From Bacteroidota bacterium (GTDB lineage: Bacteria > Bacteroidota > Ignavibacteria > UBA10030 > UBA8401), in NCBI GenBank assembly GCA_035506275.1, contig DATJPT010000002.1, forward strand, positions 62,001 through 126,000: a stretch of 64,000 nucleotides of DNA, given 5' to 3'. Numbering within the stretch: the stretch's first letter is position 1; each line of letters opens with the position of its first letter. The notes under the pieces are model-generated. The model saw nothing but the letters and a program-made list of their open reading frames with translations, had not been told where the DNA came from and searched no databases. Positions 26,805 through 63,811 of this stretch are shown here, piece by piece. Made by a program: the position numbers and the translations under genes.

Positions 26805-27359
26805 TTAAAGGACTTCTTTCAGAAGTTCTTTCCGCGGATTAGGGATGACCACTTTGTTGACAAGCAGGCCGCGTTCTGCGCATACTGCTCCTGCCGAATC
26901 AACCGCCGACCGGACGGCGGCAACATCTCCCGTCAATGTGACAAACGCTTTCCCGCCGAGCGCCATTGCGAGACGTATTTCAATGAGCTTGACGCGCGCG
27001 GTTTTTACGGCGGCGTCGGCCGCCTCGATCAACGAAGCAACGCTGAAGGCTTCGACTATCCCAAGCGCCTCAAGGACCTCAACCTGCGATGTTCCGGAAA
27101 TCGCCGGGAAGACATCTTTGTGAACGTGAGGGATGACGAATGAATCGATGACCATACCCGTGCCGCTCACTGTGCCTCCATCGACGCTCGCGCGAACGGC
27201 AGCAACGTCGCCGCCGACCATGACGATGTATTTCCCCGAACAGATGCTGCGGGAGAGAAGCAATTCAACGTCCGCAGCCTTGAGCATCGCATCGCCAACC
27301 AAATATCCGGCGGCAATGCTGGAAAGTTCGATCAAGCCGATGGAATTCATTTCTGGCAT
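26805..27359 (-). CDS. pduT: Tandem-BMC microcompartment shell protein, PduT-like
   Basis: 184 residues made of two BMC domains (about 6-85 and 100-180): SIGLIELSSIAAGYLVGDAM and then SGKYIVMVGGDVAAVRASV; second copy LGIVEAFSVASLIEAADAAV and GKAFVTLTGDVAAVRSAV. Length and layout equal PduT. Cys 40 in SICSGKY stands where PduT has the cysteine that ligates a [4Fe-4S] cluster in the trimer pore, so electron transfer across a microcompartment shell is likely. GAGG precedes the ATG by 8 bases. It follows the PduS-like gene by 15 bases, and PduS is its known partner. No other shell or enzyme genes lie in the window. Confidence 0.92.
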   Translation of the reverse strand: MPEMNSIGLIELSSIAAGYLVGDAMLKAADVELLLSRSICSGKYIVMVGGDVAAVRASVDGGTVSGTGMVIDSFVIPHVHKDVFPAISGTSQVEVLEALGIVEAFSVASLIEAADAAVKTARVKLIEIRLAMALGGKAFVTLTGDVAAVRSAVDSAGAVCAERGLLVNKVVIPNPRKELLKEVL

Positions 27360-27374
27360 GATTTTCCCTCGCGT

Positions 27375-28688
27375 CTATTTTTGTTCAATGACAATTTCTC
27401 CTTCACGCAGCGCGACAATACCCGGGATGCTGGCATGAATACGCGCACCGAGTTTCCCTTCCGGAATATCAGCGATGACTTCCCCTGCCTTCACAGCGCT
27501 TCCGGATCTCACAACCGGAGTCGCCGGCATTCCGATATGCTGGGACAAGGGTATCCGCACGCTTTCCGGACGAAAATTCCTTTCGCGATAATGGGCCGGC
27601 ACGTCATAATCTTTTACGCCAAGTTTTCCGATAAGTTGTTTCAACGGAACGTGTCTCCCGTCGTAGATGGGATGAGGTTTCACGTCCCGGCTGCCGTTCC
27701 ATGCTATTCCCTTTGCTTTGAGATCGACCTTTGCCTTGTCGCATGCTTCCTTCGGGTACAGATCTTCAGGACAAGCGTACAGCGTGCAGAGCCCGCAGGA
27801 GCAGCAGAGCTGCGCCCATTGGTTCCAAAGATCTTGGCCGGATGCCGTGAAGCTGAGGCTTCGCATGACCTTGTGCGGCTGCACATCGTAACCCAAGAGA
27901 TACCGGGGGCAAAACTCCGTGCAGTAACTGCACTGGTCGCACGCCGATTTCCCAATGCGATGCTTCGATTGTTCGGGCAAACTTTTCCTTGTCATCAGCC
28001 GGTGTTCAACAGGCAGAACGACCAGGCCGGCGCAAGTTTTGGTCACCGGAAGGGACATATCCGTGGCGAGCTTTCCCATCATGATCCCGCTGACGAAAAC
28101 AGCGTAGTCGGTGACCGTTGCTCCCCCCGCCGCCGCAATAACGTCTGCGAAGCTGATCCCAAGGGGAACGGTAAACGTTGACGGCTCTTTGACCGCCCCC
28201 GCAACCGTAATGCATTTTGCGGTGACCGGAACTCCTTCGGACGCATAATACATGTTCCGCAATGTCTCGACATTGTTGACGATGACGCCGATGTCGGCAG
28301 GGATGCCCTGCGGCGGAACGAGCCGTTTCGTCGTCTCATACACCAGAATGTATTCATCCCCTGTCGGATAATAATCTCCAAGCAGTCTCAGTTCGATGTT
28401 CGTCCTTTCAAGCGACGATTTCACAGCGCCGAGCCGTTCTTCGTATTTTTTCTTGACGCCCAGGATCCCTTTCTTCGCTCCCGTCGATGACATCAATTGA
28501 ACCATCCCCTGGACAACGGGCTCGGGTTCCCGCACCAGCAATTCCAGATCCTTATGAAGAAGAGGTTCGCATTCCGCGCCATTTGCAAGAACGTATTCGG
28601 CGTTGGATGCCGCCTTAACATGCGAGGGAAATCCCGCTCCTCCGCAACCGACAACTCCGGCACTTTTTATTTTTTCATGGAAGGTCAC
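27375..28688 (-). CDS. pduS: RnfC-like ferredoxin/cobalamin-reductase, PduS-like
   Basis: 437 residues. N-terminal flavin/NADH-binding part with GVVGCGGAGFPSHVK, then a SLBB-like segment (about 150-230: AVKEPSTFTVPLGISFADVI), two [4Fe-4S] motifs CDQCSYCTEFCP and CCSCGLCTLYACP (about 255-310), and a C-terminal barrel-sandwich domain (GEVIADIPEGKLGARI ... IPGIVALREGE). This is the PduS architecture: an NADH-using flavoprotein that reduces cobalamin or passes electrons to the shell protein PduT, whose gene follows. The frame begins with GTG at 28688; there is no in-frame ATG or Shine-Dalgarno sequence near, so the start is the weak point. The pair probably serves a microcompartment coded elsewhere. 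Confidence 0.92.
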   Translation of the reverse strand: MTFHEKIKSAGVVGCGGAGFPSHVKAASNAEYVLANGAECEPLLHKDLELLVREPEPVVQGMVQLMSSTGAKKGILGVKKKYEERLGAVKSSLERTNIELRLLGDYYPTGDEYILVYETTKRLVPPQGIPADIGVIVNNVETLRNMYYASEGVPVTAKCITVAGAVKEPSTFTVPLGISFADVIAAAGGATVTDYAVFVSGIMMGKLATDMSLPVTKTCAGLVVLPVEHRLMTRKSLPEQSKHRIGKSACDQCSYCTEFCPRYLLGYDVQPHKVMRSLSFTASGQDLWNQWAQLCCSCGLCTLYACPEDLYPKEACDKAKVDLKAKGIAWNGSRDVKPHPIYDGRHVPLKQLIGKLGVKDYDVPAHYRERNFRPESVRIPLSQHIGMPATPVVRSGSAVKAGEVIADIPEGKLGARIHASIPGIVALREGEIVIEQK

Positions 28689-62389: not shown

Positions 62390-63811
62390 ATGACAGCTAC
62401 CGGCAGATCAATCGACCAGACTTCGGACACTTCGCAGAAATCGGAACATGGAATGTACCGCGGTCCGTTTGCTATCATGACCACATTGTTTTTCATGTGG
62501 GGTTTCATGACGGCATGGAACGACATTCTCATTCCGCGATTCAAAGAAGCATTCACGTTGAATTATTTCAGGGCGATGCTTGTTCAATTTGCTTTTTTCG
62601 GCGCGTATTTTGTCGGATCACTGCTCTATTTTACAACCTCTGTCGTGGCTGGAGATCCGATCGCGAAAATCGGATACAAAAACGGTATCGTTATCAGCCT
62701 GCTGATTTCGGCTTTTGGAAGTGCGATCTTCTGGCCTGCCGCTACGATCCCTTCTTACCCTTTATTTCTTGTCGCGCTGTTCGTCGTGGGCCTCGGTTTT
62801 GCCATGCTGCAAATTGCAGCTAATCCCTACGTAACCATCCTTGGTCCCGAGCGTACTGCTTCAAGCCGGTTGAATCTCGCTCAAGGGTTTAATTCGGTCG
62901 GTACAACCATCGGTCCGTTGATCGGCGGTTATTTGATCTTTCAATACTTCAATCACGCCGGCGTGCAGGGAGCCGATTCTGTGAAAGTTCCATATCTTGC
63001 GTTTAGTATTGCATTCTTGATTTTGGCCGCTGTTTTTTTCTTTGTCCACTTGCCTCACATAGGAGAAGGGAAAATCGATCGGGGTGCGGGCGCACTGAAG
63101 TTTCCTCATGTGGTGCTTGGGATTGTCGCAATATTCATGTACGTGGGGGGCGAAGTTTCTGTCGGCAGTTCTATCATAAATTTTCTCGGACAACCGAACA
63201 TCGCCGGTTTGACCGCTGTCGAGGCCAGCAAATATGTATCGTTGTTCTGGGGGGGAATGCTGATCGGAAGATTCATGGGTGCCGTTGAATTGAGCGATAT
63301 GAAGGCGAGGAGCAAGAAAATCCTTTTGCTCGGCATACCGGCGGGCGCTTTCGTTATTCTTGGCCTTCTTAGCGGATGGAGCATCGTCAGATACTATCTT
63401 CCGCTTCTTATCCTCTGCTGGCTCTTGTTTCAATTCGGCAAAGCGATGGCAGGACGCACGCTAGCGATCTTCTCGACAACTATTGTTCTGCTCCTTCTGT
63501 CCGCAATTGCCTTTGGTGGAAAGGCAGCGATGTGGTGTGTTGTGGGTGTAGGATTGTTCTCATCAATCGGATGGTCGAATACATTCTCTCTTGCACTGGA
63601 GGGTACCGGGATGTTAAAAAGCCAGGTCTCGTCCTTGCTGGTGATGGCGATTTTAGGGGGCGCGCTCCTTCCGCCCCTTCAGGGTCACATTGCGGACTTA
63701 GGCGGGCTCCAAATTTCATATATCGTGCCGTTGATCGCTTATTCGTACGTCGCCTTCTACGGATTGATCGGCTACCGAGCCGGACGGAATCGTCACCCTT
63801 CGGCAGCATAA
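62390..63811 (+). CDS. FucP-type sugar:H+ symporter (major facilitator)
   Basis: 473 residues with 12 membrane helices. AAGGA lies 8 bases before the ATG. The N-terminal helix has ALFFMWGFMTAWNDILIPRFK (TTLFFMWGFMTAWNDILIP here), typical of the FucP/GluP family: then FFGAYFVGSLLYF, LGFAMLQIAANPYVTILGP and LAQGFNSVGTTIGPLIGG. The family moves L-fucose, glucose, galactose or N-acetylglucosamine with protons. The residue pattern does not fix the sugar. A link to L-fucose would match the PduS/PduT pair, because fucose breakdown gives 1,2-propanediol, but this is inference. It lies 225 bases behind the SUMF1-GH gene. Confidence 0.9.
   Translation: MTATGRSIDQTSDTSQKSEHGMYRGPFAIMTTLFFMWGFMTAWNDILIPRFKEAFTLNYFRAMLVQFAFFGAYFVGSLLYFTTSVVAGDPIAKIGYKNGIVISLLISAFGSAIFWPAATIPSYPLFLVALFVVGLGFAMLQIAANPYVTILGPERTASSRLNLAQGFNSVGTTIGPLIGGYLIFQYFNHAGVQGADSVKVPYLAFSIAFLILAAVFFFVHLPHIGEGKIDRGAGALKFPHVVLGIVAIFMYVGGEVSVGSSIINFLGQPNIAGLTAVEASKYVSLFWGGMLIGRFMGAVELSDMKARSKKILLLGIPAGAFVILGLLSGWSIVRYYLPLLILCWLLFQFGKAMAGRTLAIFSTTIVLLLLSAIAFGGKAAMWCVVGVGLFSSIGWSNTFSLALEGTGMLKSQVSSLLVMAILGGALLPPLQGHIADLGGLQISYIVPLIAYSYVAFYGLIGYRAGRNRHPSAA

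What the first reader, a model, noticed from the sequence alone, without database searches (positions are those of the whole stretch)
26805..28688. Isolated pduS-pduT pair: a satellite microcompartment locus
Seen: a PduS-like flavoprotein with two 4Fe-4S motifs and a PduT-like shell protein with the cluster Cys, with no other shell or enzyme genes within more than 20 kb on either side. Known: these two proteins work together to move electrons across the shell. A satellite locus implies a main microcompartment elsewhere, perhaps for fucose or rhamnose breakdown.
Basis: partly seen in the sequence, partly recalled or inferred. Interest (0 to 1): 0.6.

Follow-up and report, generated by a model that had tools for sequence, protein, structure and literature searches.

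The report
Electron port of a scattered microcompartment
The two genes probably make an optional wire that carries electrons out of a protein-shelled bacterial organelle whose parts are encoded at seven separate places in the genome, and the enzymes inherited and lost together with that organelle suggest that it digests the sugar of DNA.

Summary
The pair is real: a PduS-like flavoprotein (27375-28688, -) and a PduT-like tandem BMC-T shell protein (26805-27359, -) with the pore cysteine. No other BMC gene lies on its 220-kb contig. It is not a satellite of a main Pdu locus, because there is none. The genome carries one complete but dispersed shell (2 BMC-H, 3 BMC-P, this BMC-T); no locus holds both BMC-H and BMC-P. 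That fits the "FRAG" layout (Sutter 2021), for which no signature enzyme was known. I found candidates elsewhere in this genome: an acetaldehyde dehydrogenase with a C-terminal encapsulation-peptide-like tail, a deoxyribose-5-phosphate aldolase with an N-terminal one, and a ribose-5-phosphate isomerase B with a EutQ-like extension. Over 120 related genomes these follow the shell almost perfectly (AldDH in 50 of 50 near-complete shell genomes, 2 of 45 others) and vanish together with it inside single genera. Aldolases in four shell-less sister genomes have lost the N-terminal helix and Cys motif. PduS-PduT is an optional add-on (36 of 65 shell genomes) with at least one apparent transfer. Fucose/rhamnose is not supported but was not excluded. 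Encapsulation and electron flow remain inferred.

The parts
27375..28688 (-). PduS-like NADH/FMN/4Fe-4S flavoprotein, 437 aa, GTG start
   Evidence: 53-82% identical relatives in 80 named contigs
28248..28670 (-). Complex1_51K (FMN/NADH-binding) domain of PduS, residues 7-147
   Evidence: Pfam PF01512, 4.1e-39
27759..27944 (-). two 4Fe-4S motifs of PduS, residues 249-310
   Evidence: Pfam PF13534, 1.6e-15; all ligand cysteines invariant
27411..27572 (-). RnfC_N barrel-sandwich hybrid domain of PduS, residues 373-426
   Evidence: Pfam PF13375, 3.2e-12
26805..27359 (-). PduT-like BMC-T shell protein, tandem BMC domains, 184 aa, starting 15 bases after pduS
   Evidence: next to pduS in nearly all relatives
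27240..27242 (-). codon of Cys40, the pore cysteine expected to hold the 4Fe-4S cluster
   Evidence: invariant in 13 orthologues; the role is known from PduT of PDU loci (review, PMC6325248)

Best explanation
The pair is an optional electron-exit module of a complete metabolosome whose genes are scattered over seven places in the genome. Shell: 2 BMC-H (C1), 3 BMC-P (two on C6, one on C19), this BMC-T (C2). [quoted passage not shown] an acetylating aldehyde dehydrogenase (C8), held by a C-terminal helix, turns acetaldehyde into acetyl-CoA and NADH; RpiB with a EutQ-like extension (C9) handles ribose-5-phosphate. PduS would oxidise the NADH inside and pass electrons by FMN and two 4Fe-4S clusters to the cluster in the PduT pore and on to a cytosolic acceptor, so renewing NAD+. 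Shown: the genes, their dispersal, co-inheritance and co-loss. Inferred: encapsulation, substrate and electron direction.
For: All shell genes of the genome: 4 BMC-domain hits in 3 genes and 3 BMC-P genes. AldDH: TIGR02518 acetaldehyde dehydrogenase 603 bits, with a conserved short C-terminal tail in orthologues. Aldolase: TIGR00126 deoC 279 bits, cut-off 117, with an N-terminal extension modelled as helix 3-16, flexible linker and TIM barrel. RpiB: N-terminal extension resembles EutQ, 8e-5. Co-occurrence in 95 genomes at least 90% complete, shell+ versus shell-: AldDH 50/50 v 2/45, EP-aldolase 48/50 v 1/45, extended RpiB 49/50 v 1/45; within three families no shuffle of 20,000 reached the observed agreement. 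In one genus the two shell+ genomes have all the enzymes and four shell- genomes have none; the ordinary aldolases of those four lack the helix and Cys motif, with linker remnants left. deoB lies by the BMC-P pair in 16 of 30 relatives. PduS-PduT: the only near-complete genome with a close copy but no full shell is G041, whose assembly is fragmented; an acetate kinase gene lies next to pduT in relatives L185 and L186.
Against: No expression, microscopy or biochemistry. PduL is absent, and alcohol dehydrogenase and Pta were not searched for, so CoA recycling and the alternative NAD+ route are open. Amphipathicity of the two terminal helices did not beat shuffling (median p about 0.19 and 0.18), so the peptides are called from position, conservation and loss with the shell. 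The EP helix of the aldolase model has low confidence (pLDDT about 65). 29 of 65 shell genomes do without a close PduS copy, so it cannot be essential to the compartment. G046 keeps an EP-like aldolase terminus with no shell.
Confidence: 0.78

Rival explanations
1. The pair is a satellite of a canonical Pdu or fucose/rhamnose-type (PVM or GRM5) locus elsewhere in the genome.
For: In a KSB1 contig (L223) homologous pduS-pduT sit inside a clustered locus with three BMC-P, BMC-H, an AldDH and ORFs that look like PduL, class II aldolase and acetate kinase.
Against: The genome has only 3 BMC-domain genes and 3 BMC-P genes, with no locus holding both kinds; no PduL; the enzymes that track the shell are DeoC, acetaldehyde dehydrogenase and RpiB.
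Confidence: 0.06
2. PduS-PduT works with the dispersed shell, but the shell's substrate is something else; the aldolase and AldDH are co-inherited for another reason or are not encapsulated.
For: Sutter 2021 found no signature enzyme for FRAG types (PMC8217296); helix amphipathicity is not significant.
Against: Near-perfect co-inheritance of three enzymes at unlinked places, each with an added terminal extension, and loss of the aldolase extension with the shell.
Confidence: 0.1
3. PduS-PduT acts outside any shell, for instance as a cytosolic NADH-dependent reductase with a BMC-T trimer as its electron acceptor.
For: The pair is isolated in most of the 80 named contigs across several phyla within about 10 kb and has apparently moved between lineages.
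Against: In the 120 genomes, close PduS copies occur almost only with a shell (36 of 39; the other three are G041, G075 and G085) and are absent from all four shell-less genomes of one genus.
Confidence: 0.05
4. The scattered genes are relics of a decaying microcompartment.
For: Loss of the whole set has happened repeatedly in these families.
Against: All ORFs are intact in this genome and most relatives; each core gene keeps its own conserved neighbours over the order; the set is kept whole or lost whole.
Confidence: 0.02

Closest known systems
FRAG-type microcompartments (Sutter et al. 2021, PMC8217296)
   Same: Shell genes at up to six places, BMC-P triplet, found in Ignavibacteriae and related phyla.
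   Different: FRAG types were listed as having no obvious aldehyde-producing signature enzyme; here an EP-bearing DeoC, an acetaldehyde dehydrogenase and an extended RpiB track the shell from unlinked loci, and the PduS-PduT module is shown to be optional.
SPU (sugar phosphate utilization) metabolosomes
   Same: The two defining enzymes, pfam01791 DeoC and pfam02502 RpiB, plus an acetaldehyde AldDH; predicted catabolism of nucleic-acid sugars.
   Different: SPU genes are clustered in one locus; here they are at unlinked places, and PduL is missing.
HO (Haliangium ochraceum) microcompartments
   Same: BMC-P triplet, shell genes partly split, and a remote pfam01791 enzyme with an EP-like N-terminus in some genomes (PMC8217296).
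   Different: HO types have a main locus; none here.
PduS-PduT of PDU and GRM loci (PMC6325248, PMC2982820)
   Same: Same domain order, adjacent genes, pore cysteine, two 4Fe-4S motifs.
   Different: No diol dehydratase or glycyl-radical enzyme is tied to it here; the pair stands alone and is present in only about half of otherwise equal shells.

Membership tests
FRAG microcompartment | Shell genes at several places, with no locus holding BMC-H and BMC-P together | tested here: met
   BMC-H on C1, BMC-T on C2, BMC-P on C6 and C19
FRAG microcompartment | BMC-P triplet | tested here: met
   three PF03319 genes; three in most shell-bearing relatives
FRAG microcompartment | Shell protein sequence types assigned by the catalogue's HMMs | not testable with these tools
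   the catalogue's HMMs and supplements are not held
SPU metabolosome | DeoC-type aldolase (pfam01791) as signature enzyme | tested here: met
   C6:51976-52845, TIGR00126 279 bits, EP-like N-terminus
SPU metabolosome | RpiB-type isomerase (pfam02502) | tested here: met
   C9:100582-101256, 225 aa, EutQ-like N-terminal extension
SPU metabolosome | Acetaldehyde-processing AldDH | tested here: met
   C8:520336-521988, TIGR02518 603 bits, just under its cut-off of 620
SPU metabolosome | Enzymes and shell genes in one locus | tested here: not met
   seven separate places
Metabolosome core | PduL phosphotransacylase | tested here: not met
   PF06130 absent
Metabolosome core | Alcohol dehydrogenase | not tested
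[quoted passage not shown]
   no locus with both PF00936 and PF03319
PduS | Complex1_51K, SLBB, 4Fe-4S dicluster and RnfC_N domains | tested here: met
   the same four Pfam domains as listed in PMC6325248
PduS | NADH oxidation and corrin or other reductase activity | not testable with these tools
   needs purified protein
PduT | BMC-T with the pore cysteine C-(P/S/A)-G-(K/R/S)-(Y/F) | tested here: met
   C40-S-G-K invariant, followed by Y or F; PDB 3n79 4e-54
PDU microcompartment | Diol dehydratase and clustered pdu genes | tested here: inconclusive
   no pdu cluster and no PduL; diol dehydratase not searched for

The most novel reading that the evidence does not exclude
An operon-free organelle: a housekeeping metabolosome for DNA-derived sugars, whose seven gene places mostly belong to conserved ordinary neighbourhoods yet are kept or lost as one unit, and whose redox wiring (PduS-PduT) is a plug-in module that moves between lineages.
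Probability: 0.45. Interest if true: 0.75.

Novelty: new variant of a known kind. Interest (0 to 1): 0.58.

Why it matters
FRAG microcompartments were catalogued without a function because their genes are scattered. The co-inheritance shown here proposes one (cleavage of deoxyribose-5-phosphate and oxidation of acetaldehyde) and names the cargo, so it can be tested by expression. It also suggests that isolated pduS-pduT pairs, widespread in Ignavibacteria, Acidobacteria, Verrucomicrobia and Armatimonadetes, may mark hidden, dispersed microcompartments, and that a multi-gene organelle can be co-inherited without gene linkage.

Tried and rejected
A main Pdu/Eut locus: none. PduL: none. Amphipathic-moment test of the putative encapsulation peptides: not significant, not used as support. 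Neighbour conservation of pduS-pduT from 1.5-kb flanks was biased by truncated ORFs and was redone on 10-kb flanks: the ABC-transporter/MFS neighbours are shared by the sister MAG L179 but not by the nearest other relatives apart from generic ABC ATPase matches. Of the AldDH hits, the 41-42% identical second copies were left out as another subfamily; so were DeoC hits that begin after residue 24 of the query (no extension). Six genomes with only a different BMC (G006, G050, G070, G080, G082, G092) were counted as shell-negative for this type. Literature searches for a functional assignment of FRAG, or for work on a DeoC microcompartment, found nothing beyond the 2014 and 2021 surveys; most subscription papers and all preprints are not held.

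Full report
OBSERVATION. The finding is correct. On the minus strand, 27375-28688 encodes a 437-aa PduS-like flavoprotein and 26805-27359 a 184-aa tandem BMC-T protein, 15 bases apart. PduS has the four Pfam domains listed for PDU PduS (PMC6325248) and two invariant cysteine motifs. The BMC-T protein has the invariant pore motif R-x-I-C-S-G-K and matches solved PduT structures. Neither reaches the named NCBIfam cut-offs, so the names rest on domain order, motifs and adjacency. The pair lies about 89 kb into a 220.6-kb contig of a 3.7-Mb genome (100% complete); no other BMC gene is on that contig.

TAXON. The nearest named relatives are Bacteroidota and Ignavibacteria MAGs: DeMMO3_9, 82% identical in PduS, and UBA10030, 70%. 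The scan may leave out the window's own genome.

THE REST OF THE COMPARTMENT. The genome has other microcompartment genes but no main locus. BMC-H (98 aa) and BMC-H with a C-terminal extension (185 aa) are side by side on C1 at 26 kb. Two BMC-P genes are side by side on C6 at 102 kb, near deoB (phosphopentomutase). A third BMC-P is on C19 at 397 kb. The BMC-T is the window's. PduL is absent.

ENZYMES. Among the aldehyde dehydrogenases one (C8:520336-521988, 551 aa) is of the acetylating acetaldehyde type and ends in a conserved short helix-like tail. Of the DeoC-family hits one (C6:51976-52845, 290 aa) carries about 70 extra N-terminal residues: a helix-like start (MNRQQLISQIVEDVLKD), then a Cys-rich CCKDGxCxDGLCVxHN stretch conserved in nearly all orthologues. 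AlphaFold2 gives helix 3-16, a low-confidence linker and a confident barrel. Of the two RpiB copies one (C9:100582-101256, 225 aa) has an N-terminal extension resembling EutQ. DeoC plus RpiB are the shared enzymes of SPU metabolosomes (PMC8217296).

CO-INHERITANCE. Five searches of the same 120 genomes and a sixth for RpiB were tabulated. Shell here means at least two BMC domains and one BMC-P, leaving out six genomes that carry only another BMC. In 95 genomes at least 90% complete: AldDH in 50 of 50 shell genomes and 2 of 45 others; EP-aldolase 48 of 50 and 1 of 45; extended RpiB 49 of 50 and 1 of 45. Fisher p-values are about 1e-23 to 1e-25 but ignore kinship. Shuffling shell labels within three families gave no agreement as high in 20,000 trials. 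In genus 18, G031 and G094 have shell, AldDH, EP-aldolase, extended RpiB and PduS; G053, G059, G073 and G086 have none of them. Their ordinary aldolase starts inside what was the linker, so helix and Cys motif are gone. Genera 4 and 27 show the same all-or-none contrast. Exceptions: G041, G075 and G084 have enzymes with an incomplete shell, and G046 keeps an EP-like helix without a shell.

DISPERSED BUT ANCHORED. Each core enzyme and the BMC-P pair keep their own neighbours in relatives: AldDH with ruvB (17 of 30) and an ORF that looks like a DNA glycosylase (25 of 30); aldolase with an ORF that looks like a SPOR lipoprotein (27 of 30); RpiB with an rlpA-like ORF (29 of 30); the BMC-P pair with a sigma-factor ORF (23 of 30) and deoB (16 of 30) (ORF names read from the sequence unless given). 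The dispersal is therefore old, not an assembly artefact. Well-assembled relatives agree: G023 (10 contigs) has BMC-H and pduS 376 kb apart on C7 and the aldolase on C4. Some relatives keep pairs within a few kilobases, for example aldolase and BMC-P in G031.

PduS-PduT AS AN ADD-ON. Close PduS copies are in 36 of 65 shell genomes. The 28 shell genomes without any PduS have exactly two BMC domains, so the core shell is two BMC-H and three BMC-P, and the BMC-T comes and goes with PduS. In the PduS tree three genomes of family 5 fall, with full support, among families 1, 2 and 6 rather than with the other family-5 rows, whereas AldDH follows the families: at least one apparent transfer. The AldDH tree has only one family-5 row, so it does not test that transfer itself. 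The pair is found in 80 named contigs from Ignavibacteria, Acidobacteria, Verrucomicrobia, Armatimonadetes, Latescibacterota and others, mostly with no homologue of the other BMC genes within about 10 kb; the cut-off would miss very divergent shell genes.

MECHANISM. Inferred: deoxyribose-5-phosphate enters, DeoC releases acetaldehyde inside the shell, AldDH makes acetyl-CoA and NADH, PduS oxidises NADH, and the cluster in the PduT pore hands electrons outside. The potentials quoted in PMC6325248 (PduS FMN about -150 mV, PduT about +99 mV) allow that direction. An acetate kinase gene next to pduT in L185 and L186 (named from its sequence) fits an acetyl-CoA-to-acetate route.

COMPARISON. Layout: FRAG (PMC8217296). 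Enzymes: SPU. Split genes with a remote EP-DeoC: also noted for HO. New here: a candidate signature-enzyme set for a FRAG-like shell, from co-inheritance, and the optional status of PduS-PduT. The fucose/rhamnose idea fits the clustered KSB1 locus L223 better than this genome.

Noticed in passing
L008:10440-10997 (C1:26440-26997): The second BMC-H carries a C-terminal helical domain (residues 131-184, pLDDT about 95) conserved over the class, with a weak Rho_N-like match (E 0.017, below cut-off): possibly a nucleic-acid-binding tail on a shell protein.
   Followed up: partly
L013:1282-2154, residues 24-39: A conserved Cys-rich motif (CCKDGxCxDGLCVxHN) lies between the N-terminal helix and the aldolase barrel; it is present also where PduS-PduT is missing and is lost with the shell.
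   Followed up: partly
L009:10332-11155: A PIN-domain protein and a small ORF that looks like an AbrB-type antitoxin lie between deoB and the BMC-P pair; the PIN gene is kept in 13 of 30 relatives.
   Followed up: no
L185:11391-11792, L186:11608-12051, L214, L251, L257: A small ORF that looks like a GxxExxY-family protein recurs within 6 kb of pduS, between pduS and pduT in L185 and L186.
   Followed up: no
L223:7261-16645: KSB1 contig with a compact locus: ORFs that look like a DeoR regulator, PduL, class II aldolase and acetate kinase around three BMC-P, PduS, PduT, AldDH and BMC-H, plus a 243-aa protein with the same EutQ-like module.
   Followed up: partly
G006, G050, G070, G080, G082, G092: Relatives that lack this dispersed set but have another BMC with a 41-45% identical PduS, mostly close to BMC-H and BMC-P genes.
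   Followed up: no
window 62390-63811: A permease that looks like the fucose:H+ symporter family; it may have prompted the fucose idea. Not tested.
   Followed up: no
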